This document shows positions 14,872-51,651 of a stretch of DNA of 64,000 bases, one piece after another; positions within the stretch are counted from its first letter, which is position 1; each line of letters starts with the position of its first letter. The DNA lies in NCBI GenBank assembly GCA_011947345.1, contig JAAVTG010000581.1, positions 620,001 to 684,000 of the forward strand. The letters run 5' to 3'. The notes under the pieces are model-generated. The model made no database searches, was not told where the DNA came from, and saw only the letters and a list, made by a program, of their open reading frames with translations. The DNA comes from Phytophthora quininea. Lineage: Eukaryota > Oomycota > Peronosporomycetes > Peronosporales > Peronosporaceae. Position numbers and translations under genes: made by a program.

Positions 14872-17041
14872 GAACTCGCCATCCTCCAGGGGCGAAGGAG
14901 AGAGAGCTCAACAGCTTGTCGAGTCGTCACACGCCGGACGGACACGAGTTGCTGGGAAGGCTGTGCCCAGCGCGAAACGAGGTCGGCCCACACGTTCGAC
15001 TCACCGCTCACGTGTTCAATCGAGTAGCGAAAACCCGAAAGTCTTAGAGCCCACCGCTGCAGCTTGCCTCGAATATGCTGACGAACTTCGCGGTGCGGCG
15101 CGAAGATGTGAATTAAATTTGCGTGATCACAAAAGATCCGAAAACCTGCTGGGCGCTCGAGAATGTAGGCGAGATTGGCACAGGCGGCGTCTATCGAGTA
15201 CGCTTCTTTTTCAGCCACACTCCAATTAAGCTCACTATGCGTGAAAGTGCCGCCTTGACATACCAGTAGTTGGTGGGCCTGTTCCACCACGTCCAGACTC
15301 GGGTCCCAGTCTAGCACCTGAGTGAGCACAATTGCCCAGCCAGTAGCGCTTGCGTCGCAGAACAAATTGATGGTGGCGGTCTCCAACGGGTAATGTAGCG
15401 GGAGGAGTGAGCAAGGGCAGCCGTTGCACTCTGGAACGCCTCGCGTTCCTTATCATCCCAATTCAAGTTGACCCCAGTCAACTGTTGACGACGGCGTCCA
15501 CGCATAGCCATCACTGCCTCCAACTTCGCCTGCAACGGGGCGAAAACCCGAGCAAAGTCAACCACAGTGTCGCGGACCCAATTGGCCGCGCACAGAAATT
15601 GTTGCAGTGCTGCTGCCGTAGGTGGCAACTCCATGTTCACGAGTGCCGCGAGTCGAGATGGATCATGTTTCACCTCTTGGCCAGTCACAATCTTGCCACA
15701 CCAACGCACGCTGCGGGCAAACAGACGGCACTTGAGAGCATTGAGCTTGAGTCCTCGTTCCCTTAGAATCCCGAAGAACTGCTCTAGTCTCCCAAGGTAC
15801 TCAGCTTTCGACCTGGCGAAGAGCAAGATATCATCGATCCAGATCAGTACCGCGTTGTACAGCATCTCCTGAAAACTCGCATGCATCTGAAGTTGAAAGT
15901 GCAGTGCAGAGTCGCACGCACCTTGGGGCACACGGGTTGGGGTGAAGACTCCGTCTTCTGTCACAAAGCTGAAAAGCTCTTGGCTGTCCTCGTGCAGGGG
16001 CAGTTGCCAGAACCCCTTAAAGAAATCGAACTGGCCAAAGCCCACGGCCCCTTCGACATTCGCCATTACAGCTGCGAGATTTGGTGTAGCCCCAGCAATA
16101 GGGACGGTCATCTTGTTCACAGCCCGATAGTCCACGGTGATCCGGAACTTATCAGTGCCAGGCTTGCGTACAGGCAAGGCTGGCGAAGCCCATCGGCTTT
16201 CATTGTTGCGTCGGACGAGACCATGCTGCTCCAGTTCTCGAACGTAGTCGCGCAGGAATTGACGCTGGTCCGGCGAGTAGCGTCTGGCACCCGCTCGATA
16301 TGGCCGTGCATTCTCTACCAATTCTACCCGCATTGGCTCTAGATTAGCCGGAGGATCAGACCCAACATTGACGCGCCAAATATCTTCGAAGCGCAACACA
16401 AGTGCACGAAGCTCGGCCGCCCATGCGTCATCGTTGGCCTCTTCGGCTACTTCGGCAAGCATCCGCTCCAGATTCTCACGTACAGCGTCTCGCTCATTGT
16501 CGAAGTCGATCTCAGGTTCAGCAGGCAAGGCACCATCGGCATCTTGCTCGGCCACAAGATTCCCCTCCGCCAGCTGCTCCATTTGTCGTCCGACGTCGAT
16601 GCCCAGTGACTGCATGGTGCGGTGTCCCAACAGGAACTCAGGTTCTTCAGCATCAAGCACCAAGCACTCCAACGCACGTAGCATGACAGGTCCCGCAGCG
16701 GTGCGGACTGACACGTCCAAAGATGCTGTCTCCACGCAGATCATTTCCACCCCGCCAACGGTTGACACAGCGAGAGGAGGATCCAGTTGACGTAGCACCA
16801 CTTCAACGTCTAAGTCACGGACCTGCTGCAGGATGCGCCGAGGCACCACGTTATGGTCCGACCCAGTGTCGAGACAGAGTGGTACTTCGATCACGTCACC
16901 GATAACAGCGTGCAGGTTGAAATCGGCACCATCGTTAAGGTGCTTCAACCTGTCCCCACGACGTTGCTGGCGCTCGCGAGCGAACTTCTGACGCGCTTCC
17001 TCTTTTGCGCTTCTGTAGCAGTTGTACAGTCCTTTAGCCAA
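14775..17041 (-). CDS. Retrotransposon protease, reverse transcriptase and RNase H
   Basis: Pol, 5' two-thirds. The protease active site is LCLDTGSDHNVVP about 50 residues in. RT has VDYRAVNKMT, FGQFDFFKGFWQLPL, VPQGACDSALHF and the catalytic box WIDDILLF (IDD where YxDD or FxDD is usual). RNase H follows with NLFCDASATGW, VAEKEAY and the tail SGESNVWADLVSRW. The frame changes once near 15400, between RT and RNase H. The 5' end overlaps the gag frame by about 97 nt (16945-17041), an arrangement that would require ribosomal frameshifting if genuine. Confidence 0.88.
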
Positions 17042-24641: not shown

Positions 24642-27600
24642 TTACGAGTGCATACTTCTTTGACCCAGACCAAGTTCTCTACTAACCCATTTTCGGGCTC
24701 CTGTCCTGCTTTTGATGATGACCTCTTTGGTTTCTTCCGGGTTCATGGCCTGTAGTTGTGCCAGCATTTCCATCGTTGACTTGTACACGAACGTGTATGG
24801 CACCTCGTTTTCAATGTGTTGAGGACTGACGTGCTCGAGATTGCTAGCAGTAGGTCGACGTGCAACAACTGGAGAGATGGCGGATTCCGATTGTTTACTA
24901 ACAACATGGTTTCTTTGAGCAGCCGAGGAGTTTTGCGGCACTGGTTTGGTCCACGACAATTTGTTGCGCTTTCGGTACCCTGGAAAGTCCTGCAAAAGCC
25001 GCTCGTACGGTTCGTGGTCCAGTCGATACAGTTCGACGATGCAGAGAGCCATGCAAGTCTCCAGTCGTGATATCCCGTACAGTAATGAAAGCTCGCCGAA
25101 AAACTCGCCGCGTTCGCGAATGGCTTCACTGGCATCCACCGTGACCATGACTCGCCCTTGCGCGATAAAGTACATGCTGCAGTCCATGTCTCCTTTGGTC
25201 ACCACTTCTTCCCCTTCGGAGCATACAACATACTCCAAACACACTAGTAATCCACGCAAGAAGTTTTCATCTAGGCTGTGAAACACACGAACTTGAGCCG
25301 CAAAGTCTCGTTGCGTTGCAAAAACTACGTCTTCGTACAATGCGCGGGATACCCTCTCGACTGAAGCGAACTCTGACTTACCGTGGTGGCGTTTCCACAT
25401 TCGAGCGTAGTAGGCTTTGATCTGTCGTCGAAGTCCTTTCGGTACGTCATTCAATAGCAGGAAATGCTGCACCTCAGCTAAACTCTGTTCGAAGTCCGCT
25501 TCTTGTTTGCCGGTCGCGTTGAACCATTCTCCTTGAGCACCGACTAGAGCGCCGTAGATGTAGATGCTCCAAAACGTGATGGCAATCTCGACGATCATCT
25601 CCAGCGGATTCATCGACAAAATGTCGCCGTAAAAGAGCGTTGAAACGCACTCGACTGAAAACAGGACGGACCGCAAGTACTTCCGCCCTAACGAGACTAC
25701 ATCCAGTGAGAAATGAGAAGCCGTCGCCTGGAGTATACGAGAGGATTCTGCTGCGGTAGTGGCAGGAATATAAGTCAACATACCCGACGTTGACAACCAC
25801 GATACCTCGTAATGCCAAAGACCAAACTCACTTGTCATGAACCAAATGCAGGCCAATAGATGGCCTGTTGCGAGGTACGACGCCAATGCACGTAGAAAAT
25901 AAAGATGTTCTTCTTTTGCTGGCAGCTTCAAGTCGTGAACAATATACTGGAAAAGTTGCTCCGATAGAGACTGAATTCGTAGTGACATCAGCATCCGGTT
26001 TATTCGTAGCAGCCACCGGGTCGACCACCACGACGCAAAAGCTTCGTCTAGTGTCGATGGCACGTTGAAGACGGGTAGCCGAATGTGGTACGAGAAAAGT
26101 AGTATCTCCAGTGGCAATAGGGCCAAAATATCAATTCGCAGGTCCGAGTTAAAGCGTAGCTTCTTCCAGAGACTACTAGTTGTTGTCGATGAATGTTTTC
26201 TACTCGAATGGGTCAATGAGATTCCGCGGATCTTGTAAATGATGTCCGACAAGCACATTACGTCCAACAACCACTCGAACCCCGACCAGTAATGGAGCAT
26301 CATACTCGGCATTTCCGAAAGTTCATGCGAAAAGCAAATCTTGAAGGGGGTCACAGTCAAGTGGTAAACCGACACCAGCAGCATGCAGAGATCCCAGAGC
26401 TTCCCCAATCTCTTTAGACGGGCCAGGAAGGCTGCTGACTCAAGGTTGGAAATGGCATCGCGCACCGCTTGGTGACTGGGCAGGTTAAGTTGTGTCGAGT
26501 CAGCGACCGCCAGTCGCCGGTTGCTGTAGCCTCGTTGATTGGAGAGCAGTATTTGCTGGCGTAGAGGTAGCGGGGATATTTGTCTTTTGTCACCACGTGA
26601 ACCTCCTCGCCAAAACAAACGTTTTACTATAGGTATCAACCCCCACTGCCAGCTATCTTTCCAACGAGAATACCGATGATACAATTGTAGTTGTGTCGCG
26701 TACTGCGGGCGTTGACAACGTTGGAGAATTTCAAAGTCAATTCCAGATTGTCCTCGGCGTTCGTCATCGACCATTAAGAAGTATTTTTGTAGTGCCGGGT
26801 GTCTTTGAAAAAGCATCGTTAAACAGCGGGAGTGAAGGCGATCGTTGCAGACGCTTAGACTGCCCGATCGTTTGGAACATTTGAAGCTGTCGGGCAACTC
26901 CACTAAAACTGCTTCTAGTTACCGGAGCGACTTTCACAGCGAAGTGGTTAAGTGCAGCTTCAGGAATGCCAATGGCACCATTGAACGCGACCGTTCTACG
27001 TCTGCTCGCTGACGAAGCCATCTGCATGATAGCAGCACTCCATTTCCTACGAGCTCGCTCGTCAATTCGAAATGGCCGCAGCTGCCTCATCGTGTAGATC
27101 CGCTTTACTACTGGTTTCAATTGTGACGGTCGCGAAGTTCTTTTCGTCTCTGTTGGGTCGCCTTCTGAAGGCAAGATGTCTCCGCGTAACTTGTCAACGA
27201 CGTGGTGAAGAGCCGCTAGTAGCTTGAAGCGAGCCCAACTCTCGTTTTCCAGATCGCGAATATCGTCGTCTTTCAGGCTGCCGCAGAGATAATCGTTAAT
27301 CGGGCTAATATCCACAATATATTGACGCTGTTGTAAATCACGCGCCTTAGAGTTTGGAGAGTTCTCTGGCACATTTGCCACACTGCCCCTACCAAAGCAC
27401 CACGCTCTCTTGTTTGTTATGGAACCAACACTAGCTTTAATATTCCCGCTGGAATCAATTTGGCGAGAACCATTTCTCGATTCGGACTCTGAAAGAGGTT
27501 GGGATAGTGCATTGGTCTTTGCTAGAAGGTATTCCGCTTTCTTTTCAAGAAGCTGAATCGCTGGAGATACAAATAAGCGGCAAATTTCAGCCTTCGAAAG

Positions 27601-30600
27601 TCTGCTCGGTGGAGTCGGGGCCCAAACCAAAGTATGAGGAGATTGAGGCTTGTTGATTGTAATCGATGATTTTTCGCGTTGAAATAACGAAGAGCCTCTC
27701 TTGCCGACTTTCTCCTTGAGTTTCGCCCACAAAGATGTGGGTTTCTGTGTCCTCGCGACGATCGTATTCTTAGCCTTCTTTGCAATTTGCAGCGACGATT
27801 GTTGATATCGCCGGAGCCGAGTGTTAACCCAATTGAGGATAGCATACTGCCCTCGCTTTTGAATATTGTTATCAGCCGTGTCATCGCAAGGGTGCCAAAG
27901 CTCCTGCCAATCCTCTTTTGACACCGATAGTACTTCGCAGGGTGTAGTGGCGCGCACGGTTGCTAGTCGTCGTTGATTGGGAAGGAAAAAGCTATTTCAC
28001 CGAAAAAGCTCCTTCTGTTAGCACAGCCACAGTTACAACCGACTTGGTCCAATATGCAGCAGCTAATCCTTTTCGAAGAGTGCATAATCGACTCCCAAAA
28101 GTTCCCTCGACAAGAATACTATCTCCAGGAATGAAAAGCTCTGGCTCCAACCGTAAAGCCAAATTGTTAATCTGCGAGTCGGTGAGGAACTTGACAATGG
28201 GTAAGTTCCTGATGGAATAGCCATAAACTTCGAGCGCTACCTGCAACCGAAGATTAGCAGACAAGTCTTGAACAGTCTCATCCAAATCGGTTCCTTTCGT
28301 ACGTTCAAACTCCATATGAAAGAAGTACGTTACACGTTCCCGAAGAATTGGAGGAAGTTCGTGCTTTTTAGCAAAACTATCGAAGCTCGCGATACGGCTC
28401 TTGTATTGTTTAATATCCTTGCCAAGTTCAAGAATGAGTTCGGAAATCTCGCCGACGATATGTCCAATGATAAATGTACAACACAAACATGTAAACCCAG
28501 TCCACAGTGTGCCAGCGGCATCTCGAGGAACAATCTCGCGACTACCAACAAGAAGCAAAGTCGTAATCGCCCAGTAGAAACTTTTGCCATAAAGAATTAG
28601 AATCGATTCATTGTATTGATGCAGCAAGTGGTCTTGATTCATCCAGCAGTTCTCCGTAAGTACGCACTCGTGCTCCGAGATTAAGAAGAAAATGCAACCA
28701 GCGTAATGGGCCACAAGGACAAGGACGATCATCAATTTAACGGGACTCAGAAACGCCCAGACATTGTGAGACGGAAAATGCTGCTGAATCTGCACGATCA
28801 CGTCGTCCAGATACACCCAGAGATCAATACATCGAATGAGTCTAGGCAGCCGACAGAGACTAGCGGTTAATGACGCGCTAGAATACGGAGTGTAAATTGG
28901 CAACGAAGCCAACACATCCCATTTAAACTCTAAGCCCCGCAAGTATTGACGGTCGATCTCTGCCCTCGTCAATAGGTTATCAATGCCAACTTCAGGGCAG
29001 CCAAAGTAATAAAGTTGCAAGTAAATGTCCACCACAAAGCTAACGTCACAACTCAAATCGGCGACCCACACCACAGTGTTCACCCAGCTCGTAAAATGCA
29101 GGTGAGAATAGAAACAGATTCGAAAATGACAATGATGGCGTTGTACACGCTCCATAGTGTAATAAATCCACGCCAAACGCTAGTGAATGTGTCGGACATC
29201 GCGAGCATACCGTGACCTACGTCGTCTTCTGGGTTGGCAACGAATTTGCCATCCCGTTGTTGGAAAAGACTAGGAGTTTTGTGTAAATGGGGCTGCAATT
29301 TTAGCTTGGAAAAGTTGTTGTTGATCCGATTCAAGACCGTTTTCTCTTCGACCAAGAGAGCTTGAGCCTCTATTCTCATGTCTTTGAGATCATTAGTGAA
29401 CTTGCGTTGGATGGCGTCAAATTGCTCCCGAGTCATCATCGACGCGTGAACAAGCGACGCAGCAACCAAAGTGCACGGATGAGGTCGCTTCAGCAAGAAT
29501 TCGCTGACACCATAGCAGTCACCACCGTGTAGCGCTCGTATCGGCACTTTACGTGCTCGAAAGAACAGGTTGATCTTGCTGCCGCGCAAAAACACGAAAA
29601 AGTCTCGACACATATCGCCTTCGATGCAGATCGTCTCTCCATTCTGGTAATTTTTGTGTCGAAACTTCCCCGTTACTTCTCGAAGAAATTCGATGCTGGC
29701 CGAATCGAAAAGAGACACACACTTCACTGCCTTGGAGTGCAATAACGCTGAGATCTGGTAGCAAAGTTTATCTGGCAAGTGGGCCAGCAGCTCCGACTCA
29801 TAAGCTTGTTTGTGGTCGATGAATTGCTGGTGGTAAAACTTGCGAATTTCAACGCTCAATTTGTCGGAGAGACCGGCCCGCTCCATTACACTGTTCACTA
29901 TGTTTACACGCTCGATATGATGCCGATTCGAAGCCATCATGTTCGAAATCGTGCTAGACATTGCTCCCATTACGCCAAAGTTTATAATTCCACCCACGAA
30001 AATCCACAGCGCAGCGAAGTAGCTTTCGGCAGTCGAGTATGCAACGATATCTCCATAGCCCACACCAGTAAGCGTGACAATCGCCCAATACAAAGCCCGC
30101 AGGTAGGCGAATGACCCTATATATGTTGAATCAACGTTGTCGTGCGGAAAGACTACACCGATATTCGCATAACAATCATACGTTACCCACGAGCAATTCT
30201 GAAATTGAGTGGCTTGTCGAAGACAATCGGATCGCGTTAGCTCATTTCGTAACAAGCCGCCGTCTCCGTGATCCGAGTTGTCACCAGCAGAGATCATCGT
30301 CATTTCGAACCATAGACAGCCCACCATATGCAGCATTAGGGTGACGCCAAGAAGCAGCGCAACAACTGTGTGGAATTTGGAGCTGGTATCATAGACCTCG
30401 CATAGGTCTCCAAGTAGACTTGGTACTAAACGTATTCGCAGCAGACGCAAAAGGCGAAACAATGAGGAAAACATCTGGACAGATTGATATGATAATAAAT
30501 CAAGAATGACACCAACGGGAACCCAAGCCAGTAGATCGAGATAAAAGCCGCTACTTTTGTACGCCGTGAAGATGAGATCTGGTCGTGTAACACTCAACAT

Positions 30601-32875
30601 GACGGTTGGATCTAACAACGCAAAGTACCGTGAGCGCAAAAGAAGATCGATCCCAAAGAAGATTTCCACAAACAGAGTTATCCAGTTTCGTGTGTCACCC
30701 TCAGGTTTATCGTTGAACATGCGCTGCCCCACAGTCATTGAGATGAACACCGCAAAATACGACACTTCGAATGCAGAGTAGACACTCCCTATTAGTCGAA
30801 TCGTATCCCATAAAACCCGAAAATCTGAGCCTGGCAGGGACCAATGTATCGTCTCACGAAATTTGAGGTTCATTGGGCCATTACCACCTGTCGCCTTTGC
30901 ATTTCTTCCGACGGATGTTCGACCCAATGACGTCCTCCCCACCGAGTTGGTCGCTTGAGAATTCCGACCGACGGAACTTTTGCTACGTTTGCTCCCCTCC
31001 CAACGGAACTTCTCCCTACGGAGTTTCTACCGAATGAGGCTCTTGTATTTAACTGCTCAAAACCTTCCCGCAGCCCCAAGATCTTCTTAGTTTTTCGAAG
31101 CTGCATTGCGTACCGATCCAACATCCTGGCCATCCGTGTGCGGTTTTCTTTTCGCGGCCTGGATAGTAGTCGGACAAGACATCGTCGAACTTTGGTTTTG
31201 TAAGAACATAGAGCTCACAGAAAGTTTTAGCGATAGCCATTTGGCAGTACATCTCGGGGTAAAGCAAACAGCTTTCGGCGAAGAAATCTCCAGTCTGGTA
31301 TTCGTGAGGGTTTGCGCCGTTGAAAAGAGATAGCACCACTTGGCCAGAGATGACGAAGAACATTTGTGCGTTCGATTTGGGCTCGATAACTTGGTCTCCA
31401 GGTGAATACACTCGGCGGACCATTGCAACCGCAAGGTCGTTAATCAATTCGGTCCGTTCCTTCATTAGAAAACACACTTGAGCGATACGATTCGCTCTCA
31501 GAGCTGCGATGACTTTTGCCTGTAAATGCTTTGGCATCATATCCAAAGCGTCTTCGCTGTCAAGACTGTGGTGGGTATTCCATAAGTAATTAAAATACGC
31601 GATGACTTGATCCTTTATCGGTCGCGGGATATCTTGTAAGCGCATATACTCCCGAGCATTGTCCACGTGTGCGGAGTAGGCAGCATACCGAGCATTCCTA
31701 AAGCGAAAAAGAAAAAGAAAATTGGCGAGCACCGACGATCCAAACAGCGCTCCCATGATCGTCACAATCACCGCATACATCGTCTCTGAGTTAGATACGG
31801 GAGTCACATCGTCATAACCGAGAAGTACTAGCGTTCTTGTTGCCCAATACAGTGTTCGGCCATATTTTCTTGGCACTGACGCGCCGAACAGTTGATCGCG
31901 AACCACCCAACTGGTCTCGATCGTTCTGTCACAAGCCTCCAGAGAAACACCACACTGTGCATTAGCGATCAGCATATAGCCACAAGCAGCCCAATGACAC
32001 AAGCCAATGCAGGTAGCGATCCTTCTTGCAAGGCTGTCAATTCCTGTCGAACAGAGATGCTGGATCCACGAGCGGTCTGTGTACAGTTTTGCAATCCGAC
32101 TAAGGTTACGTCGTAGTCGATACAAGCGGCACAGCTTCGTTACTCGAACCAGATGAAGAGAATTGTAAGCGCCTGAAGCGTAGGGCAATATTTCCATCGG
32201 AGCGATTGCAATTAACTCCAGCACAAGCTCCACATTCCGCGCTGTCATATACTTTTGCTGTTCCGTGAAGTCGTCGTTTTCGTCGCTGGGTATACTGGAT
32301 ACAGGACTGATGGAAGAAATGGTCCAGTTGATTTTGCCAAGCAGTTCACCGAAGGACGACCTTCTCTTTGTAGCAAATCGATTCGCGTTGAGGCGATCGG
32401 TGTCGCTTGAAGCTTTGTTAGACCGTAAACTTGCAAATACCGAGAGCTGCGTAAACGCCTCCCTCCAAACTTGGTAGAACATCAGGAAATCGACAACTCC
32501 AATGATATCGGCGACTGCGTCCAAGGCTGCAAACATGCTCAACTCCTCAGTCCATTGACGACTCTCTTTCCAGCCGTTATTTGAATACGGATCGTAGTAA
32601 AAGGCGATGCGGAGGGGAACCGTAAAGAACGTGTAGATCACAGCGTACATGCTTAACGTTACGCTGATAGTCTTCCTCGTGAGGGAAGGTAGTCGCTTGT
32701 AGGATCGGACAAGTGAGCCAATTACGTGGTCGTAGAGTTTGTGGCAAAAACGCTGTCTCCTTGCTGGCCGAGCTTTACTTAGAAGAACTGCGGTCGATGG
32801 TCCGCCGATGAGAACGGGGGCGCTTTCATCCACCAAAAGTTGCCGAGGCCCCGGCTGGATCTTACCTCTGGCCAT
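24642..32875 (-). CDS. Channel gene B: four-domain CNBD ion channel, each domain with its own pore and CNBD
   Basis: About 2,740 residues from ATG 32875 (MARGK). Four consecutive units each have S1-S6, a pore loop, C-linker and cyclic-nucleotide-binding fold. Domain 1: S4 KLCRLYRLRRNLSRI, filter LGYDD, CNBD ending near 31170. Domain 2: S4 RLLRLLRIRL, filter GVGYGD, CNBD with FRHKNYQNGE. Domain 3: S4 CRLPRLIRC, filter LVGSRE, CNBD with the start of a phosphate cassette (FFGEIA after repair). A linker of about 300 residues follows (27900-26900). Domain 4: S4 RWLLRINRML, filter TLFYGD, CNBD with FFGELSLLYG. Frame breaks repairable by one base lie at 31144-31147 (T4), 30994-30997 (C4), 29123-29126 (A4), 28003-28007 (A5) and 27986-27990 (A5). 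A frame change between 26764 and 26903 is unresolved and could be an intron. Four domains in one chain imply a single-chain pseudotetramer, as in Nav/Cav channels (inference). Confidence 0.85.
25620..25643 (-). other. Selectivity filter, domain 4 of gene B
   Basis: Encodes STLFYGDI in the position of the K+-channel T-x-G-Y-G signature. FYG replaces GYG and no glycine precedes the aromatic residue. Confidence 0.8.
28532..28555 (-). other. Selectivity filter, domain 3 of gene B
   Basis: Encodes LLVGSREI. The GYG core is replaced by GSR followed by an acidic residue. The paralogue A has LLVGSSEI at 707-730. Confidence 0.8.
30046..30069 (-). other. Selectivity filter, domain 2 of gene B
   Basis: Encodes TGVGYGDI, the only canonical K+-type signature in the protein. 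It is identical in gene A (2213-2236). Confidence 0.9.
31808..31822 (-). other. Selectivity filter, domain 1 of gene B
   Basis: Encodes LGYDD (context VLLGYDDVTP). The second filter glycine is replaced by aspartate; the same residues occur in gene A at 3813-3827. Confidence 0.85.
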
Positions 32876-33048: not shown

Positions 33049-36000
33049 TCATTGTGGCGTGTTATGCTGGTGACTGACGAGGTTGGCGATGGAACACATC
33101 TTGGTCGGAAGTTTGTTGACGTGGAAGTGTATCAGAAACCAGCGCGGTTGTTGACGTGGAGAGATGGTGATTTTGCTTCGGGTGTTAACTGGGCGGTAGT
33201 TGCAGTCATGTGTGCATTTTAAAAGTTGGTCCGCGTAGCGTGTCGGCGACGCAGCGCCATTCTTACTCTCGCTTGTACTCCCTGACATTCGAACAAATGA
33301 TCCCATTCGTTGCAGTAGTCTCGGCCGACTTTCGGTTCTTGAAAGCGGCGAGTCAACATCATTGGCAGAGTTGTTTCTGTTTGGTATGTACGGTCGATCA
33401 GCTGCTAATTCTTGAGCTTGAAGGAGGTTAAAGCTCTTCTGTAGTTCTTTCACCGCATTCAATATCGCAACTTCTCGTTCCCCCACTCGACATAAGCGTT
33501 CTTGCAATGACAATTTTCCTTGCGTTGGAGGCTGGACTTGGTCTGTTTGTGGAACATTTGTCAACGCTTGCGTCTTGTGGTCCAGTGGTGTGTTCATTTC
33601 TTCTTGTCTATGCTGATTGGCGTTGGCTGAATTCACACTGTCTTTCTGCTTTACAGTTTTCTTATGTTCGGTTATCCTCCTTATGCTGTCTCGCTTTCGC
33701 CGTCGACGCTCGCGTAGCTCGATCAGCTGGTCCCGAATTCTACCATTGACGCCGAATTTTAAAGTCGTATCCTCCATTTCAACGTTGATAGCTGTGTAAA
33801 TTCTCTCCGCCGCTTGTCGGGTGGTCAGTTCCGTTGGGATAATAGGTAAAGCTTCACCGGATTTCGCAAGCTCTTCTGCAATCGCTTCAGGACTGTAAAC
33901 GCTTCTCACCATTTCTAATAGTGGGCAACGAGTTTGACTAATCTCGTAGCACTGCATGAACGAAGTTAGCATGTCCACGACAACACGATGGCGATCGCCT
34001 GGGTACCTTGCCAACACCGCCTGGAAGTTATCACGAGAGAGCACACACATCTCCACATGAGTGACCGCACGCACGTTTGCTGCTCGAGAATAATTCATGA
34101 GAAGCGCAAGATCACCAAAAGCTTGTCCTCGCGAAACTAGACTGATCAAACCTTTTGCAAAACGACGGCCAGCGTTGCTATAGTAGTAACGTCTTTGGTC
34201 AGCGTCAAGCTCGTAGGCCGATTGTCGGTAGCCATCAGCAACAGTACTAGCGCTTTTAAGCTCGAAGATCGGCGACGAGTTTTCATAATACTGTTTCGTC
34301 GGAAATTGCTGATTCCTCGTCCAGTGCTAACAGCATTGCTTTGAGCGAAGTCGCCCAGCATAGAAGCAGTGACTCTTTCGAATCGATGAGCTTCACGGCT
34401 AACCTCACAATATCCACGGTTCACCATGTAAAACTCGTCGTCGACTTCGCCCTGCCGCATGATAAAGTCGTCCGGCAGGTACACTCGAACATCAAGCCGC
34501 AGCATCAACTGCTTTTGGAAATCGGCGCTGCAATCTGCCCAGAATGGAATCTGCATCACAAGTTCCATGTATTTGAACAGCACCACCTCGAGACCTAGCG
34601 TGTGGGATAACTCCTTTGAAAACTGCACAATTTCACCATCAAGACACTCGTATTCATGCCACAGATGTTCGTAGTATAGATGAATTCGTTCGCGTAATGA
34701 ACTTGGCAGCTGAAGCTTCGCCGTCATGGCGATAACAGCCTCCATCTTGCGTTGGTAGTTCGTAGCGTTTGCATTAAAATTCGATACCAGGATTCCAACA
34801 TGACCGAAAACCACGGCGAGCACGATCGATCCCAAAAGGGTCGACAACGAAGCGAAAAGTTTTGCCCGGCCGTGTTCGATCGCACACCTTGCCCCTGTAG
34901 GAGAAGTAGAGCCACATAAAACCGGCGATATATTGATCTCTCCACGGTCTTATTGAGCCATCGTAATCGTCCGATTCTTCCAGCAAAAGCGTCCAAATGC
35001 AAGCCATATAGTGCGCGATTGCTATGGTTGTCATCACCATCGCACCAATCCGAAGGAGATGTGAATAACGAGAGTAGAGCAGCCATGCCCAGAAACTGTG
35101 GACAGCACCCGATTCATTTATACGAGCGAGCCAAATTAGCCGCACGAAGCGACCAACGTACACAAAGCGTTCAGCGCTTACGATATCGAGCACGAAACGT
35201 AGCCACGTATCACTAACACTTCCACTGCTTGGATAGTTCATGCGAACAATTAACGGAGCCGCTAGAATTGCATCCGACAAGAATCGTGTCTTTACGTAAT
35301 GAAACGCAATGTTTCCGTGGGAGTTCACGACAGAACCATTTTCCGTTACGTAGCTCGTGTGGAATGCGAAAAGGATGTCCAGACCCAAGATAATTCCAAT
35401 GACGCCACTAACACGCGTGAATGGTGTTTCATTGGGGAATGCAAACCCCAACGGGAAGTAAAATATGTATATCGTTGTAGCCAAAAGAATCGTCAAGTAT
35501 CGAGCCTTTACAATCCACGAAAATGGTGACACAGGTGCAATAAGATGGCGAAATACCAGCTTGAGTTTCCCTCTCCATACGATATGGCGACGTTTGTCTT
35601 GGTAGATGCTGAAATTGCCAAGAAATTCATCACCAACCACAGGTGTGGATTGTGGTCTGTTCAAGTCTTGGGCATCTCTATCTTGTGATATGTAGTCATT
35701 TGTCCTTCTGGGGTGGCACCAACTTCAGTCCCGTTCGAAGTTTGATCATCAGCAATAGCTTCCCCTTGTTCAGTCTTGGTTTCTGAAAAATCAGTAAGGG
35801 ACTGAGCCGACAATTGCCGAATCTGGAATCGAACCAGCATTTCTTCATACGGACTTTCCACTCGAGTCTGGGTTTGGTTTTTAGCGCCCAGATCATGTCG
35901 ATTTCCAGAGATCAGCGAAGCCAGAGATTTTGTCGTGTAGGTTGGGCCCCGGCGCGTAGAATTACGTCGCAATATTCTGGCACCATATCTTGGTGTATCG

Positions 36001-36188
36001 CTCGGACCTCTTTCGGGAATTGGAAACACCTCTCCAGAAACCGCTTGGGATGAATGACGTCGAACTATCACCTTGGAATTTCTTTTAAACGTTCCGTTGG
36101 GGGCATTAAAGGACTCAGGTTTTGCTACATCACCGGGAATGAGCGATGAAGCGACAAACCCGATCTCAGTCGTCCTAGTCTCTTCCAT
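33049..36188 (-). CDS. Channel C: single-domain CNBD channel with QGQG filter
   Basis: ATG 36188 (MEETRTTE) begins a long N-terminal tail with RRNS-type basic-Ser motifs and ESPYEEMLVRFQIRQL, shared with channel D. S1-S6 follow (S1 near 35500; S5 YMACIWTLLL). The pore loop reads LLLLQGQG at about 34883-34900, then S6 LLGSIVLAVVFGHV. The C-linker (ERIHLYYEHLWHEYE) leads to a CNBD with a PKA-like phosphate cassette, FGDLALLMNYSRAANVRA. A roughly 60-residue insert rich in RRxS motifs interrupts the CNBD. After the CNBD lies a conserved segment (AINVEMEDTTLKFG), then a basic coiled tail. One-base frame repairs are needed at 35670-35672 (G3), 34918-34921 (A4), 34855-34858 (A4) and 34254-34257 (T4). 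The predicted protein is about 1,045 residues. It is a probable cyclic-nucleotide-responsive cation channel of the plasma or another membrane; selectivity is unknown. Confidence 0.83.
34883..34900 (-). other. Filter-position motif of channel C
   Basis: Encodes LQGQGV directly after the pore helix (YVALLL) and before S6. It occupies the place of T-[VI]-G-[YF]-G, with glutamine instead of the aromatic residue. Frame changes flank it on both sides (A4 runs at 34918 and 34855). Confidence 0.7.
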
Positions 36189-36318
36189 CTGAGTATCTGC
36201 GTTGAAAGCAATTCCTTGGCCAACAAAAAATATAATAATAGGAGAAGCAGATCCGTCGAAACGGATGCGTCGCCTCACCACTACTTAAGATCTCGCCTTC
36301 ACTTAGTGCGCCGTGCCA
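36189..36318. promoter_or_regulatory. Shared divergent promoter of channels C and D
   Basis: Only 130 bp separate the two start codons, which point away from each other. The gap has an A/T-rich block (AAAAAATATAATAATA at 36225-36240) and a perfect 6-bp-arm inverted repeat, ATCCGT-CGAA-ACGGAT, at 36251-36266. The two genes are likely co-regulated from this segment (inference from layout). Confidence 0.6.
36251..36266. repeat. Inverted repeat ATCCGT(CGAA)ACGGAT in the divergent promoter
   Basis: Two 6-nt arms with a 4-nt loop lie near the centre of the 130-bp gap. It could be a dimeric transcription-factor site serving both genes or a chance palindrome. Confidence 0.5.
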
Positions 36319-39300
36319 ATGGACGAAAATGGCAAGACCGAAGCAGGTGATGATGTTGCTGCACTCGATACAGTCGACCATGACAACCAAAGTTCAACTC
36401 TGAATGGCTCCGAAGGAACACCTTCTCTACACACTTCCTCTGCGACTGACATCCTCTCGCTACCTTCGCTACGTAAAAGCCAAGCTCGAATTGCACGACG
36501 TCACTCCACAGCACCAGGATTGGTGTATCCAATTGCAGATCCAGCACAGTCTCTGGTTCGTGTGAAAAGGTCCCGGAGACGCAGTATCTCGTCCCGAGTG
36601 TTAAAGCGGAACTCCAGCATTCTTGCGCGGCGTTCACTTCGAGACGTCTCAAGCAAAACAGTTGAAGAGGAAAGTAGCACCATTCCTGAAAAAGTGTGTC
36701 CAATACTCCCGAACTTCCAAGCGAGTCTCCGTACGATGAAATGATGGTTCGTTTCCAGATCCGACAACTACAACGTACACCTTCTACCATCTCAAATGAC
36801 CACCGCGCTACGGTTGCGTCCAGTCGAGGGTTGTTTGGTTCAACCCGTGGCGCAGTCGTCGATACCAATGAAGGAACCGGCCTGACAGCTCGACACCAGT
36901 TGCATCAAAGACTATCGTCTCGCAATGTTAGCGATTACGCCAACTCTACCAACGATGTTGGCTCTCGGACTGCTAGTTTTCGAGGAGATAGCATTTTCAC
37001 TGAAGCGCATCGACGGTTCGAAAGTGTCGCCAGTAGCGCTCAGCTCGACGAGCAATTTAATCTTGCGTTTGGGGATCTGGATGACCCAGCTGATTCTCGG
37101 ATACACTCTTGGCATCATCGGGTCATGCCGAAAGTACTCTTGTGGCAGCGAAAACTGTTCTGCCCGATCTCGCCGTACTCCCGCATTACTCGAGTTCGAT
37201 ATCTAGCTGTTTTGGTGGCCACCGTCACGTATGTGGTTTGGTTTCCGCTGGAACTCGCGTTTCCAATCCAGCATCAAATCTCCAACATCGATACTGTAGT
37301 GAGCATTATGTTGGGTGTTGATGTGGCGATCTCACTTCACACGGCTTATGTGACGAAAGAAGGAGCTCTCGTCGCTTCACATGGGCAAATCGCTTGGAAC
37401 TACGTGAAAACACGTTTCGTCTTGGATGTACTACTAGCCGTGCCGCTACTTATACGTGTCGAAAACGATAGTAAGACTGGACAATGGCCACAAGTTGTGC
37501 TGGATGGGCTAAGTGTCGAGCGACTCGCTTACGTGGCCCAATTCGCACGCATGGTGTGGCTGGTTCGCGTGAATCAAAGAGGCCGCACTAACATCTGGGC
37601 GTGGCTGCTTTACTCTCGATACTCGCACTTGCTTCGAATCGCTGGAACTGTGGTCATTTTGATCGCCATCGCTCACTATATCGGCTGCATCTGGACGCTG
37701 CTTCTAACGGAGGGTGACAAAGTTGTTGTCCCAAACATGCCGTGGCACGATCGATATTACGCAAGTTTCTATGCCGCACTGTTATTGCTTCAAGGTGAGG
37801 GGTGCCGCCGACACTGCTGCTCAAAATCTGTTTGCTTCGTTGTCGGCGCTCTTGGGCTCCATCGTACTAGCTGTGGTGTTCGGGCACGTCGCCATGTTGG
37901 TGTCTGATTTCAACGCAAACTTCACCAATTATCAGCGCAAAATGGAGGCCGTAATTGCAATGACTGCGAAACTCCAACTCCCAACATCTCTGCGCGAACG
38001 TGTCCACCAATACTACGAGCATCTGTGGCACGAATACGAGTGTCTAGACGGCGAGATTGTACAATTTTCCAAACAGCTCTCGCACACACTAGCGCTTGAG
38101 GTGGTGCTGTTTAAATACATGGAGCTGGTGATGCACATTCCATTCTGGACAGACTCGACTCCTGACTTCCAGAAACAGTTGATGTTGCGGCTTGATGTTC
38201 GAGTATACCTACCAGACGACTTTATCGTGCGGCAGGGCGAAGTCGACGACGAGTTTTACATGGTGAACCGTGGATACTGCGAGCTCAGTCGCGAAGGTCA
38301 CCGATTTGAGCGAGTCACCACAACGATGATGAGATCAGAGCACACGAGTAATAACGGTGGACTTGGAGCACGTCGACGCACTGCGACGCATGTTGCACAA
38401 ATGGATAGTGGTCACTGGCAAAGTGTCTACGAGCTGGACGCAGCGCAACGGCGATACTACAGCCGAGTCGCTCGAAAAGGTTCAAAATATCACGAGAGCT
38501 TGGTCACACGAGGCCAGGCATTCGGCGATCTCGCTCTTCTCATGAGTTATCAACGCGCGGCCAATGTTCGAGCCATCACCCACGTCGAAATGTGCGTGCT
38601 TTCCCGGGAGAGTTTCCAGACCGTGATTGCACGATATCCAGACGACCGGCATCACGTGGTGGTGGAAATGCTCACATCGTACATGCAGAGTTATGCGTTG
38701 GCTCAGTCGCGCTGTCCAATGTTGGAGCTCGTGCGGGATATCTACAGTCCCGAAAATATAGCAGAGGCGTGTGCTAAAGCTGGCGGTGTCCCTCCCTTGC
38801 TCCCTCCAACTTTTACAGCTCGGCAAGCAGCTGAACGAATTTACACGGCAATCAATGTCGAGATGGAAGATACGTCACTTAAATTTGGCGTTGGCGTCCA
38901 AGTCCGAGAACAATTGATCTCGTTGCGGGAGCGTCGGCGGCAAAAGAACAACAATAAAAAGCAGTCTGAGAAAGCAACTTCGACTGTCCCCACCGACGCT
39001 TCCTCGACGCCACAAAACAAGAATATTCAAAGCGGGTACCGGTCTGACAGTGGTTCTCGTTTCCAGAATGAAAGAAGTGATGCTTTACACGCAGCTTCTG
39101 AGGCGACATGCAACGTACCACATCCACCAAGCGTTAAAATTCCTCCGGATCATCAAACCCCATCACAAATTCCGCAACAATTAACCTGGCAAGCACGCCT
39201 GAAGCAAGTAGAAGAACGAGAGGTCGCGATTTTACGTATGGCCCAGGAATTGCACTGCAGCTTGAAAATACTCCAATCTCGACGATCTTGTCAAACAACT

Positions 39301-39950
39301 GCGAGAGGCCCAAGCCGAAAACGTTCTGTTGCTGGTGCTGATACGACAATTCAAACAGAATCACTGATGGCCCTTTCCTCTGGCAGCAATTCGGAGATCA
39401 ATCTCTCACTTGGAGAAAAAACATGTGGCTACTTGAACCATTCGTGGCCCCAGGAAATATTGAAACCCGTGATCGGAGTGTTTCTCCAAAGCAAGAAATT
39501 GAACGCCATCCGCGCCACTTGATGAAAGTTTCGACACCGATCACCATGGGACTTGAGTCCTCCAAACCACGGACAGGCCCATCCACACCTGGACACTCTC
39601 GACGTGGTATTTTCGAGCGCCGGAGAAGCCAGTCGCTACGATCGTTAGATCCTTCCTTCCATGGGCGAACGGCTGCAGCTTCAGCGGCTCCCAGCGAGTC
39701 CCAGCGACGAAAATTATTCCAGCGTACAGTTAGCCACAAGGTTCTGCAGCAAGCGCCAGCACCGCGTGCAAGTATCGGCTCTCTTCCAGCATCCGCGATC
39801 CCCAACGAGCCCTTGCGACGGAATTTTTTCCGGCGTACTCATAGTCAAAAATCGTTTTATAGAGCCTCCGACACGGTGACGACAGCTCCAGCTGCGAGAC
39901 AAGCATCGGTTCCAACGCCGACATCTTCCATCGGATGGCTGCTTTTGTGA
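36319..39950 (+). CDS. Channel D: single-domain CNBD channel with QGEG filter
   Basis: ATG 36319 (MDENGKTEAG). The basic, Ser-rich N-terminus has several RRxS/RRS motifs (RSRRRSISS, LKRNSS). The ESPYDEMMVRFQIRQL block is shared with channel C. The S1-S6 core spans about 37180-37950; S5 is YIGCIWTLLL, the filter LLLQGEG is at 37788-37802 and S6 is GSIVLAVVFGHVAML. The C-linker leads to a CNBD with DDFIVRQGEVDDEFYMVNRG and a PKA-like cassette FGDLALLMSYQRAANVRA. The post-CNBD conserved segment is AINVEMEDTSLKFG, followed by a long disordered tail with repeated RRxxFxR(R/T)xSxK elements. One-base repairs are needed at 36689-36693 (A5), 37799-37802 (G4) and 39416-39421 (A6), giving about 1,210 residues. 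Its whole-length similarity to channel C marks an inverted duplication. Confidence 0.83.
37788..37802 (+). other. Filter-position motif of channel D
   Basis: Encodes LQGEG after the pore helix (YAALLL). It places a glutamate where K+ channels have Tyr/Phe. A G4 run at its 3' edge carries the frame change. Confidence 0.7.
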
Positions 39951-41025: not shown

Positions 41026-43734
41026 TTATTGTACTGTGCACGCTTGGCTGGCGACTCGATTCCGTGCCAATTGGTCGTTGTCACTGCCATTCATGTTGCT
41101 GGCACTTCGAGCGGATGGCAAACGCTCACCAGTTCGAATTGGCGTAAAGTTGACTTGGAAAATGGCACTCACTGGACGATGGTCCGAGGAGCGAAAGTCG
41201 GTTTGGCTACGATAGTTCAGTAGCTCAATGTCGTAAGTCTTTTCATTCGACAAGTACAGAACACGATCAGTCCAAGACGGGATGCGTTGCTTCGAAGACG
41301 AGTCGTAGACGTCGCTGCGTTTGTCGAATTTGTACGTGGGTCGGAAGTGCAAAGGACCTTCCTGGAAGTGAGGGAACACATGGCCCGCTTGCATCTCTCG
41401 GCGCAGCTGGTCGTTGGCGTACAGAACTGCGTGTTGGTTCCGCAGCAATAGTAAATCCACCATGCGTCGAGTGCCGCTGATTCGGTAGTTGAGGTCGCCA
41501 TACCAAAAACTCGGTCGAACCGCTCGCTGATGGTGCGCTTTGACTCTGCTGAAGCACCTCCAATTGTTGGAATGGAGAAGCGATTAGCGGTAGTACGTCC
41601 GAGTCCGGTCAAACTGGGGTTGGCGACATCGACTGGCATGGGTACTACAGACCGTGGGCTGGCCGGAATGCTTGTGGGGGACAGCTTGAGCTCGTGGTTG
41701 ATGCGGTGGAAGTTCTCGTTGCGTCTCGACACGTTGCGTTGGTGGGCTTCAAAATGGCAGTTGACAAACGCGAAACTCGTAGCGCCAACGGTGAACGCAA
41801 TGCCTACACCTCCTTTATTGCCAAGTTGGTTGCCGAGTCCCGTAGCCACTGCATCGGACTGAATATTGCCCAGCAGTGGCAGAACACTCGCGTGCACAAA
41901 CACAATATTGTGAATAGCCGTAAGTGCATGGGAAGTCACAAGAACGTAGTCGTCCCCCATTGCGCTTTTCAACTGGTCCTCCCACGACTTTTTAGATGTG
42001 AAGACGACGCTCTTTGCGATGGAATTGACGCATTCCTCACTGCCGATCGCCACGATGTGGTACTTGTTCAACCTGATCCATAGACGCAAATCATCCGTCG
42101 GCTTTTTGGCATGCATGTTCCAAGTCCCACAAAAGACTCGTAGCTGGCCGTGTGAAAGGAATCGCGCGTGTCACCTTGTCACCAAGTGCTGTGGCATTTT
42201 CATTGAGCTCCTGCCAATCGTCTAGAGCCTCCAAGTCAATCTGGGCTGGCCATTCGCCAACTTCCTCCGGGTCATTACAAGCTGCAATTTCCTCTTGATG
42301 CAGAGTATTTCTAGGCGAGTTCGCCCCAGCAAAATCGCCACGAAGCTGCGCCCTTTTTCGTCTTCGTCGCCGTCTCTCTCGGTCGGTAATCGGCATACTC
42401 TTTCGTACGAGTAAACCACGAGCTCGGCTCTGAATTTTGCAGCAAGCTTCGTGTTGCAATTCCAGCAGTGCTTCATCCCTTAGCTCTTGGTCTAATTCGG
42501 CTTGGCGCTGATGAGCAATAGCTCTGCCATTGCCACCACGAACCCTTGCCTGAATTCGTGTTGCCATGAAATGATGCAACTCACCGTACTCGATTTCTTG
42601 TCGGAACATCTTTAACAATGCAGATGACGGTCCAATTTTGCCTAAAGGGTTATCGATGGATCCAGCTGAACGACTGCTGCACCGATGGCTCCGCACCGAT
42701 CCACGCTCAGTCCTACTGGTCCTCGCTTTACGCTTTGAGCGCCGATGGCTTTGACGATTTGTGTCAATTTCGGACTCTGATGATGAATTTGAGCTCGGAC
42801 TTGAGCACGAACACGAGCACGAACATGAAGAAGTAGACGAAACTGAAACACTAGACTCGCACGAGCACGACGATGAACACGACGCCGACGTTGGGGAGTC
42901 ATTAGGCCGCGGAAGTAAGCCGTCCGTTCTTTGAGGGAGCAACAATGGAGGTATCATCGGCTGACTCTTCTCAAGTTGAACTTGTTCGTCTGTTGCCGTG
43001 TTAGTTGGAGCTACCTCCGACTTCCCACTTGTGAGCTCCGAAGCACTGGTCGGCAAATCTATGACTTCTGGTGTCTCCGCTGGCGTAGACGTCGGTGCAA
43101 TCATTTCTTCGGCATGAACTCGTGGGGATTGTCGAAACATCGTTTTACACTTCTTGTATCTCTTTTTCAACGCCTTTTGAATCGTCAAAGCAGCAGAATC
43201 TACCTGGCTGGTATGCTGGGATGGCGACTTCTGCACGATCTCTACTGTAGCGGGATAGTGGCTTTCTTCCAACGTCGCCTCAGCATTTTCCACTTCTTGT
43301 GTATGTTCACGGCGAACATCCGAACGGTCTTCACCAATAGTAGTTACCACGGTGTTAGTCTCAAACGCCTTCTCCTTTTCAACGCTCTCAGTTGGAGCAG
43401 CAGACTGCTCGATCGACGGTGTGGTCGATGCCACTGCTGCAATATCTTCTTTGAGCATGCGCTGTATTTCAGCTTTTTGTTTCTTTTCTTCAAGGCGTCG
43501 TTGCTTTTCTTCGGCTCTTTGCTTTGCATGTGCCCGCCGTTCAGCCTTCTTCTTGCGAAGTAGCTCTCTCTGTCTCTGCGCTTTGGCATCTTCCATTGAC
43601 CGTGCCGAATCGGATCGGGTAGGAGATGAAGACCCGTGCACAGGAGACCCGCTTTCATCGTGAGGTTGGTTGTCGTTCAGAGGATCTGGCAAGTCGACCT
43701 CAACGCCGACGCGGTTGTGTCCCCGACGAGGCAT
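41026..43734 (-). CDS. IQ-motif protein fused to an inositol-polyphosphate 5-phosphatase
   Basis: ATG 43734 (MPRRGHNRVG). The N-terminal half has a charged coiled coil (about residues 45-90), three IQ motifs (LTIQKALKKRYKK, TRIQARVRGGNGR, CKIQSRARGLLVRK) expected to bind calmodulin, and a Cys/Ser-rich run near residue 290. The C-terminal half is a 5-phosphatase catalytic domain with GTWNMHAKKP, GNKGGVGIAF, VNCHFEAHQRN, GDLNYRI, PSWTDRVLYL and SSDHRPVSAIF. It would remove the 5-phosphate from phosphoinositides or soluble inositol phosphates, possibly under Ca2+/calmodulin control (inference). The frame breaks at 41505-41509 (A5, inside the FWYGDLNYRI motif, repaired by one base) and near 42150 at the IQ/phosphatase junction (two bases needed). 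Predicted length is about 900 residues. Confidence 0.85.
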
Positions 43735-43896
43735 TCCTACTTGTATCGAAGCGCCTAGTCATGGAAATCCCTAACTATAGCCAACGGTTAGCTAGAGCGA
43801 CGAAGGCAAGAGAAGCAGTGTCAAGAATTACACGTTGATACGATAAAAAAACAATATGCAGAGCGACAAACACACCCAAGCTCACCCTCGTTGTGC

Positions 43897-49115: not shown

Positions 49116-49611
49116 GGTGGAGGGTCGAGGAGGCCTTTGGGGGTAACCGAGAGGGTCGCGCTCTGGCTTTGGAAAGTGAAGCTTCTTCGGCTAAATACGA
49201 AATCAGACGATAGAACAACCCACGCTTTGCTTGTCAACCTGGCTCGATGAAAGTGCTCGGCCGAAAGCGCTGCAGCTTCGAAAGTGCGTTGGATGGGACT
49301 GCTGCATTCCAACGCTTTCGTTTGCGTCGGATTGAGGTGGGGAGCAATGCCACTGGAACACTGTCTTCGACGAGGTGAACAGATATCACCGCCACGCATG
49401 CGAACTGCATGGTAGAAGCGATTACCTCCACGCCGAGGACTTCTTGAGATGCAGCAGGTGATTAGCCGACTCGACAACAATTCTCCAGCATCTTCATCGA
49501 TCGGATCGGTACGTTCAACTCGATTGTGATCACATCATTGCCATTGAGCAAAGCAAACTGCGAGACGCTTTATCATCAAGCACGCAGCTCTGAGAGTTGT
49601 CATCAGCAGGT
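49116..49611. other. Ferlin upstream region / left flank of the tandem array
   Basis: About 500 bp holding the ferlin promoter on the right of its start. No gene is recognised. The tandem array begins at about 49612 (AAGAACGAACAGCTCG). Confidence 0.5.
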
Positions 49612-49649
49612 AAGAACGAACAGCTCGATAACGATTGATCTAATACCAT

Positions 49650-50639: not shown

Positions 50640-51651
50640 GGCGGCGGCTGGTTGGCTTTCTTTGGTTTGCTTTGCTTTGCTTGCTTGTTGGCTTTTTCGG
50701 TTGTGCTGTTGGCCGGGTCGATCGATCGGTTCCCACGCGAATGCGTACAGCGCGAGTCGAACACGCTGGGGGATGTCGGTGCATTACAACCGGTGGCCCT
50801 CGTCTTTGGACTCTGTGCCGGGGGCTGACTATCGTTTGGTGGTGCTTTGGATGGAACGGAACGAGGACGCCTCGGTTGGATAAGGTTGAGAGGAGGACAT
50901 TGCCACTCGTTTTGTTACTGCAGCTGCTCTCTGGTGGACAGATCGATCTGAGTGTCCGCAGCCTGAAGCAGCGGCCAACTCGGGGGCCGGCCATCCATCC
51001 GACAGGGCGGCCTCGATTTCCGGCCACGACACAAACCCCACGAGCCACACCAACGAGATTTATGTCGCTGAAACTCCGTCACACTCGTCGGACGGCTCGA
51101 CTGGGTTCGCGGCTGGCGTTCCTCTCGCTGTAGCTTCGAGCCGTTTGGTCTGCTGGTTTGCTCGTCCTAGCGCAGTAGAACATCGCCGAGATTTTCGTCT
51201 TGTTCAACGCAAGGTCAGCGTGTACTTCCCAGCGAACATTCTTCCGGGACCTGGACCCGGACTTCGGGTCGTCAGTGAGCTGCTCTGTCGTGTGTAGTGT
51301 AACCCTTTCATGTGCGTCAGGTCAAACCACCCGCAAGACGCTCTCTCGAAGGCGAACACTGAAAAATGTCCACACCTCGAAGCACCTGGTCAGTCGCAAT
51401 GTCGAGCGTTGCCGGGCTGGGCCGCGATCACCAGTGGGGCTGCCGGGGCTGCCAACCAACTTGGACGGATGATATCGGAGAGAGTAGACGGTTAACGATC
51501 GAGATCTACCTCGGCAAACCTTTGCGAAGAACGAACAGCTCGATAACGATTGATCAAATACCATTTATTGACACTTGCACTTTACTCCTCGCCACTTTTC
51601 TTGAGCACCGCGGTTATAGCTTTCCGCGCAGGCTCGACTTGTCGCCACCGT

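What the first reader, a model, noticed from the sequence alone, without database searches (positions are those of the whole stretch)
24642..32875. Single-chain four-domain CNBD channel with four different pore signatures
Seen: four complete S1-S6 plus CNBD units in one minus-strand gene, with filters LGYDD, GVGYGD, LVGSRE and TLFYGD. Known: HCN, CNG and EAG/plant-type channels are tetramers of single-domain subunits; fused four-domain channels (Nav, Cav, NALCN) lack CNBDs. Inference: this is a pseudotetrameric cyclic-nucleotide-type channel whose asymmetric pore could have a selectivity unlike K+ channels, with an acidic residue contributed by every domain. I know of no characterised protein of this design, but cannot search.
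Basis: partly seen in the sequence, partly recalled or inferred. Interest (0 to 1): 0.92.

Follow-up and report, generated by a model that had tools for sequence, protein, structure and literature searches.

The report
Lopsided four-in-one oomycete ion channel
This gene belongs to a family of very long predicted oomycete (water-mould) proteins in which four ion-channel units, each followed by a nucleotide-sensor-like domain, stand in a row; three of the four pore-filter sequences lack the standard potassium signature in a conserved, unit-specific way, so the channel is predicted to pass ions differently from the closest known design, the potassium-selective CNGK channels of sperm.

Summary
A single chain is still well supported. 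Of 122 relatives fetched, 56 annotated proteins (gene models) carry all four repeats in this order, in 16 Phytophthora species and five other named oomycetes. The filters are repeat-specific: repeat 2 has VGYGD in 56 of 56; repeats 1, 3 and 4 have GYG in 0 of 56 each (one own-genome paralogue, L014, is an exception). CNBD ligand residues are kept in repeats 3 and 4, lost in 1 and 2. From oomycetes a survey reported two-repeat CNBD channels (PMC7576140). Best reading: an asymmetric pseudotetramer conserved across oomycete genera, likely cyclic-nucleotide-regulated and not K+-selective. Selectivity, ligand and expression are untested. New variant of a known kind; interest 0.72.

The parts
31052..32875 (-). 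Repeat D1: S1-S6, C-linker, CNBD (phosphate-binding-cassette Arg replaced by Tyr)
31808..31825 (-). D1 filter LLGYDD (position of second filter Gly is Asp)
   Evidence: coordinates derived from the ORF; conservation
29125..31026 (-). Repeat D2 with preceding SVGR-rich linker: S1-S6, C-linker, CNBD (cassette Glu and Arg replaced by Val and His)
30049..30066 (-). D2 filter GVGYGD, the only canonical one
27995..29122 (-). Repeat D3: end of S1 to S6, C-linker and first part of CNBD
28535..28552 (-). D3 filter LVGSRE (Tyr is Ser, second Gly is Arg)
26767..27996 (-). Rest of D3 CNBD (FFLPNQRRLATV, cassette Arg kept) and long D3-D4 linker, in another frame
24645..26903 (-). Repeat D4: N-terminal linker, S1-S6, C-linker, CNBD with cassette Glu and Arg kept, C-tail; stop codon at 24642-24644
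25623..25640 (-). D4 filter TLFYGD (first filter Gly is Phe)

Best explanation
The locus carries a member (frame-broken in this assembly) of an oomycete family of predicted single-chain, four-repeat CNBD channels that would fold as an asymmetric pseudotetramer, whose pore is likely not K+-selective and is predicted to be opened by cyclic nucleotide binding to the CNBDs of repeats 3 and 4. Shown: repeat order, repeat-specific filters, repeat-specific keep or loss of CNBD ligand residues, conservation across Phytophthora, Pythium, Globisporangium and Albugo gene models, purifying selection between two copies. Inferred: the four repeats line one pore; because only repeat 2 keeps VGYGD, the four-fold carbonyl cage for dehydrated K+ cannot form, so the pore passes mixed cations (K+, Na+ or Ca2+) past a narrow site made of an Asp in repeat 1, an Arg diagonally opposite in repeat 3 and a Phe in repeat 4; the S4 segments keep arginines and set voltage dependence; repeats 1 and 2 act as structural CNBDs. 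A role in spore-stage (sporangia, zoospore) signalling is a further inference.
For: 56 of 122 fetched relatives hold D1-D2-D3-D4 in order, and none has another order at my identity cut of 30%. Filters are fixed by repeat (n = 56, near-identical strains included): D1 position 9 D50/S4/N2; D2 VGYGD 56; D3 Ser/Thr for Tyr 56 and R46 at position 9; D4 Phe/Trp for the first Gly 54. Cassette Arg: D1 0, D2 0, D3 56, D4 53 of 56; cassette Glu: D1 6, D2 1, D3 55, D4 54 of 56. Ten own-genome loci (L009-L018; L009 may be an allele, L012, L015 and L016 are close to each other) keep the repeat order; all four filters could be read in eight of them, L009-L016. Single paralogue frames cross every junction: D1-D2 in L012, L017, L018; D2-D3 in L010, L011; D3 to the start of D4 in L012, L017 (with match coordinates). 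Each repeat is one group at SH-aLRT 100 in a quick tree with 8 of the 56 proteins plus the window. dN/dS 0.21 over 1870 codons of D1-D3, window against the 97%-identical copy L009. Where D3 has a basic residue at filter position 9, D1 has Asp in 57 of 58. P. infestans genes classed as cyclic-nucleotide-related, CNG channels among them, are nearly all expressed mostly in sporangia and zoospores (PMC5322657 passages; not resolved to this family).
Against: I saw no electrophysiology, transcript or ligand data for any member. The window copy has at least five frame changes, mostly shared with L009. One own-genome paralogue, L014, breaks the pattern: D1 reads LLGYGD (GYG present), D2 VGYDD, D3 INTPvD. 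P0090 departs in D1 and D4 (LFVQDE, MPDHGD). The D1 Asp-D3 Arg link is weak once relatedness is counted: two to three independent pairs go the same way, none opposite, and the sign test cannot reach 0.05; exceptions are P0043 (Tyr with Lys), L017 (Tyr with Arg), L010 (Lys with Gly) and L012/L015/L016 (Asp with Ser). PMC7576140 warns that selectivity cannot be predicted from the filter sequence (HCN against Kv), which cuts against my inference too. The structure models have mean pLDDT 59 and 54, and the whole chain could not be folded.
Confidence: 0.5

Rival explanations
1. [quoted passage not shown]
For: Three of four filters lack GYG (0 of 56 each); a bulky Phe and an Arg sit in the filter. 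HCNL1 is a CNBD channel that conducts protons through its VSD (abstract start in the listing; passages).
Against: Degenerate pores should drift; here each filter is conserved across genera, acidic mouth residues are kept in 56 of 56 in all four repeats, and repeat 2 is invariant at VGYGD.
Confidence: 0.25
2. It is still an essentially K+-selective channel, an oomycete CNGK.
For: Same architecture as CNGK; one canonical filter strand is fully kept; the tree does not exclude a joint clade with the Amia CNGK-like repeats (p-AU 0.246).
Against: CNGK pores carry GYG or GFG (PMC4749565 passages); Amia P0050 reads VGYGD, TGFGD, VGYGD, TGFGD. The CNBD pattern differs: Amia repeats 1 and 3 keep cassette Glu and Arg, the oomycete family repeats 3 and 4.
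Confidence: 0.13
3. The window copy is a pseudogene of the family, its frame changes being real. (Not exclusive with the readings of the family.)
For: Frame changes mostly shared with L009, in a gene with many copies. Only 2 of 8 indels between window and L009 lie in homopolymers, so the usual sequencing-error signature is not shown. Housekeeping genes could not be checked for comparable breaks (same request unanswered twelve times).
Against: dN/dS 0.21 with dS 0.086 between the two copies, so constraint lasted after they parted; filters intact; all paralogues fetched are broken too, at varied places, and neighbouring channel genes look broken as well, as assembly errors would be.
Confidence: 0.2
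4. Two to four separate adjacent genes rather than one chain.
For: The unit upstream (33052-36284) is a separate single-repeat CNBD channel, so neighbours of this type do occur; some database models hold only some repeats: of 99 proteins with any repeat, 43 had fewer than four.
Against: 56 single-chain models in 21 named species, and paralogue frames that cross each junction.
Confidence: 0.04

Closest known systems
CNGK (tetraKCNG, name recalled) channels of sperm; metazoans and choanoflagellates
   Same: One chain, four 6TM units, a CNBD after each; unequal CNBDs (the sea-urchin channel is gated by one cGMP at the third CNBD, PMC4749565 passages)
   Different: CNGK filters are GYG/GFG and its domains are described as nearly identical, without obvious specialisation (PMC6259924 passages); here the four filters differ, the III-IV linker is long (median filter spacing 947 against 543 and 507 residues), and the hosts are oomycetes
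[quoted passage not shown]
   Same: Oomycete CNBD channel with fused repeats, each repeat forming its own clade
   Different: Two repeats, filters TVGYG or close variants; my example P0053 (P. nicotianae, 1373 aa; assignment mine) has SVGYGD and TVGFGD and its repeats fall outside D1-D4
HCN, CNG, KCNH/EAG and plant CNBD channels
   Same: Unit fold and order S1-S6, C-linker, CNBD
   Different: Tetramers of one-unit subunits; here four units per predicted chain
Nav, Cav and NALCN four-domain channels
   Same: Pseudotetramer with asymmetric filter; a basic residue in domain III, as the Lys of DEKA (PMC6259924 passages), here by convergence
   Different: No CNBD and another filter type; no Nav/Cav chain is among the rows shown

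Membership tests
CNGK | Single chain of four 6TM-CNBD repeats | tested here: met
   56 of 122 relatives (gene models); in the window copy itself the frame is broken
CNGK | GYG or GFG filter in each repeat | tested here: not met
   D1, D3, D4: 0 of 56 with GYG or GFG; window likewise; paralogue L014 has GYG in D1
CNGK | Common descent with CNGK repeats | tested here: inconclusive
   No supported grouping; joint clade not rejected, p-AU 0.246; one CNGK-like protein only (Amia P0050, named CNG alpha-3-like by its source; the CNGK label is mine)
CNGK | K+ selectivity, cGMP or pH gating | not testable with these tools
   needs electrophysiology
[quoted passage not shown]
   four repeats
HCN/CNG/KCNH | One 6TM-CNBD unit per subunit | tested here: not met
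CNBD-channel superfamily | 6TM with C-linker and CNBD | tested here: met
   D3 CNBD and D4 Ion_trans without Pfam hit in the window
Nav/Cav/NALCN | Four domains without CNBD, EEEE/DEKA-type filter | tested here: not met
   CNBDs present, filters alignable to TVGYGD

The most novel reading that the evidence does not exclude
A K+-channel-type pore was turned, independently of Nav/Cav, into an asymmetric single-chain pore: one canonical strand (repeat 2), a diagonal Asp-Arg pair (repeats 1 and 3) and an aromatic plug (repeat 4) make a non-K+, perhaps Na+- or Ca2+-passing, cyclic-nucleotide-gated channel that drives electrical signalling in oomycetes. It would be the first four-domain CNBD channel with specialised domains, against the published view that only the Nav/Cav/NALCN lineage took this route.
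Probability: 0.4. Interest if true: 0.86.

Novelty: new variant of a known kind. Interest (0 to 1): 0.72.

Why it matters
A review states that CNGK channels show no obvious domain specialisation and that only the Na+/Ca2+/NALCN lineage adopted an asymmetric architecture (PMC6259924 passages), and a survey of CNBD and Kv channels names metazoan CNG as the only clade-wide departure from the filter consensus among those it analysed (PMC7576140). This oomycete family is an exception to both. Its single chain would let each of the four filter strands be changed on its own, which makes the question of what one, two or three non-canonical strands do to a K+ filter directly testable. It is also multi-copy in a group of plant parasites whose zoospores depend on ion signalling.

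Tried and rejected
Intron reading of the frame changes: rejected at D1/linker, D2/D3, inside D3 and D3/D4, where the flanking homology is contiguous in DNA; not excluded between linker and D2, where the window holds about 100-135 extra bases.

The upstream unit 33052-36284 as a fifth repeat: rejected. Its near copy lies beside D1 only in L009, the probable allele; none of its other matches lies beside the other nine four-repeat loci.

D1-Asp/D3-Arg covariation as proof of contact: not accepted. Fisher p 1.7e-7 ignores relatedness; the tree-aware test has two to three informative pairs.

Origin from CNGK or by internal duplication: unresolved. The AU tests reject none of four groupings (p 0.235-0.346).

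Structure: D4 of the window (mean pLDDT 59.3, pTM 0.46) and the D2-D3 protein P0003 (mean pLDDT 54.0, pTM 0.46) give CNBD-channel-like fold matches only; nothing about the filter is read from them.

Indel pattern against L009: 8 indels, 6 not multiples of three, 2 of 8 in homopolymers, so homopolymer sequencing error is not shown.

Genome-wide frame-error control with Hsp70 genes: not completed (the same request each time).

Papers, what I saw: PMC7576140 first of five parts and passages; PMC4749565, PMC6259924, PMC5322657, PMC12223298, PMC4820453 and PMC11700363 passages; all others listings only. That this family is not described in print rests on the searches and 83 of an open-licence library; supplements could not be read, and PMC4820453 and PMC5322657 count CNG-type genes that may include members.
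Full report
What is in the sequence. On the minus strand between 32875 and 24642 lie four units of the CNBD-channel type. By sequence alone each is a relative of SthK, CNG, HCN and KCNH channels. Hydrophobic peaks for S1, S2, S3, S5, pore and S6 are seen in D2 and D4; D1 shows no separate pore peak, and D3 lacks S1 and S3 peaks, its S1 being cut by a frame change. S4 segments with several Arg align across paralogues. The filters, in the register of TVGYGD, are LLGYDD, GVGYGD, LVGSRE and TLFYGD.

The reading frame. The units are not in one frame. Against intact relatives (P0067, P0068, P0074) the window gene changes frame at least five times; four of these places have no intron-sized gap, while between the D1-D2 linker and D2 there are about 100-135 extra bases that read as an SVGR-rich linker but could hold a short intron. 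I altered no base. The single chain is argued from relatives. In this genome, single open frames of paralogues run across every junction: D1-D2 in L012, L017 and L018, D2-D3 in L010 and L011, D3 to the start of D4 in L012 and L017 (with the match coordinates). In public proteins, 56 of 122 fetched (three searches) hold all four repeats in order, 1867 to 3077 residues long. They include 16 named Phytophthora species and five other named oomycetes (Nothophytophthora sp. Chile5, Globisporangium polare, Pythium oligandrum, Pythium insidiosum, Albugo candida). These are gene models, not transcripts; counts include near-identical strains; one search scored only the candidates that shared most words. 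Seven of the 62 fetched proteins of 2150 residues or more failed my four-repeat criterion: P0015, P0031, P0096, P0100, P0116 (partial members), P0118 and P0119 (others).

Conservation by repeat. At the six filter positions of the 56 proteins: D1 L51, L53, G55, Y51, D50, D53; D2 A42 or G8, then V, G, Y, G, D in all 56; D3 L56, V52, G56, S53 or T3, R46 or N5, E53 or D3; D4 T54, L52, F52 or W2, Y52, G55, D55. All four filters could be read in eight own-genome loci, L009-L016: D1 LLGY[D,K,S,G]D, D2 VGYGD, D3 LVGS[R,G,S]E, D4 TLFYGD or TLFNGD. L014 is the outlier: LLGYGD, VGYDD, INTPvD, TLLYGD, so there GYG stands in D1 and not in D2. In the more distant L017 and L018 only part could be read (D4 TVFYGD and TVCYGD). 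The phosphate-binding cassette of the CNBD keeps Glu and Arg in D3 (55 and 56 of 56) and D4 (54 and 53 of 56) and has no Arg in D1 and D2 (0 and 0 of 56). In a quick tree of 70 repeat rows, with 8 of the 56 proteins plus the window, each of D1 to D4 is one group at SH-aLRT 100 that spans Albugo, Pythium and Phytophthora, so the four identities were probably fixed before these split. Relation to CNGK is unresolved.

Selection. Between the window gene and the 97%-identical copy L009, dN is 0.018 and dS 0.086, ratio 0.21 over 1870 codons of D1, D2, D3 and the D3 tail; D4 and the end of D2 dropped out because their alignments hold gaps. Constraint therefore lasted after the copies parted, which speaks against old pseudogenes, although frame changes are mostly shared by the two. 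Of 8 indels between them only 2 lie in homopolymers, so sequencing error is not demonstrated either.

A possible diagonal pair. Position 9 of the filter is Asp in D1 and Arg in D3. In a pseudotetramer these repeats would face each other. Over 69 proteins: D1-Asp with D3-basic 57, neither 8, Asp alone 3, basic alone 1. On the tree this comes down to two to three independent pairs with none opposite, too few for significance. In the own genome L010 (Lys with Gly), L012/L015/L016 (Asp with Ser) and L017 (Tyr with Arg) do not follow it. I treat it as a lead.

What it most likely does. Architecture and filters point to an asymmetric pseudotetrameric channel of the CNBD superfamily. With one canonical strand of four, K+ selectivity of the usual kind is unlikely; the CNBDs of repeats 3 and 4 are the likely ligand sites. 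In the sea-urchin CNGK only the third CNBD counts, and the zebrafish one is gated by pH (PMC4749565 passages), so ligand predictions from CNBD sequence are fallible; PMC7576140 warns the same of filter sequences. In P. [quoted passage not shown]

Against what is known. Tandem CNBD channels in oomycetes were reported as two-repeat, and four-repeat ones in metazoans and choanoflagellates (PMC7576140). The same survey names metazoan CNG as the only clade-wide exception to the filter consensus. A review calls CNGK domains nearly identical and without obvious specialisation (PMC6259924). Long members have been in databases as 'Voltage-gated Ion Channel (VIC) Superfamily', cyclic-nucleotide-binding or hypothetical proteins, so the sequences are not new; I found no description of the design or of its pore in the searches.

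Limits. The frame-error rate of the assembly could not be measured. Structure models have mean pLDDT 59 and 54. No functional data were seen.

Noticed in passing
window 137-4888 (-): D3, D2 and D1 of a second four-repeat copy (L012; its D4 lies just outside the window). Four such copies lie within about 63 kb of contig C573 (590-653 kb).
   Followed up: partly
window 33052-36284 (-): Single-unit CNBD channel gene directly upstream, also in several frames; another family.
   Followed up: partly
window 36696-39522 (+): Another Ion_trans plus CNBD gene in two overlapping frames, 45% identical to the upstream unit over its channel part.
   Followed up: no
window 41220-49115 (-): Run of C2, FerI (below cut-off), IQ and Exo_endo_phos2 matches: perhaps ferlin-like gene(s) next to the channel cluster.
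   Followed up: no
window about 49600-58300: GTTGGTGAG blocks about every 1.9 kb, five times, in a stretch of GC about 0.61: probably a tandem repeat of a 1.9 kb unit.
   Followed up: no
window 15311-17041 (-): Retroelement-like frame with reverse transcriptase and a weak aspartyl protease match.
   Followed up: no
L014 (C718), D1 and D2: A four-repeat paralogue with GYG in D1 and GYDD in D2, as if the canonical strand had moved to the neighbouring repeat.
   Followed up: no
P0120 (Lagenidium giganteum, 2066 aa): Four CNBD-channel-like repeats with non-GYG filters, far from the present family: perhaps a second asymmetric design (filter register unsure).
   Followed up: no
P0118 (JGI source, 2478 aa): Four CNBD-channel repeats, three with GYG/GFG filters, from an unnamed organism.
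   Followed up: no
P0119 (Diplonema papillatum, 3920 aa): 24 CNBD-like stretches in a row in one protein that its source calls a PKA regulatory subunit.
   Followed up: no
L017, L019, P0043, P0045, P0046, P0117: A divergent subfamily with D1 filters such as TVGYYD, TLGYYD or TAGFYD; D3, where read, GSRE or GSKE.
   Followed up: partly
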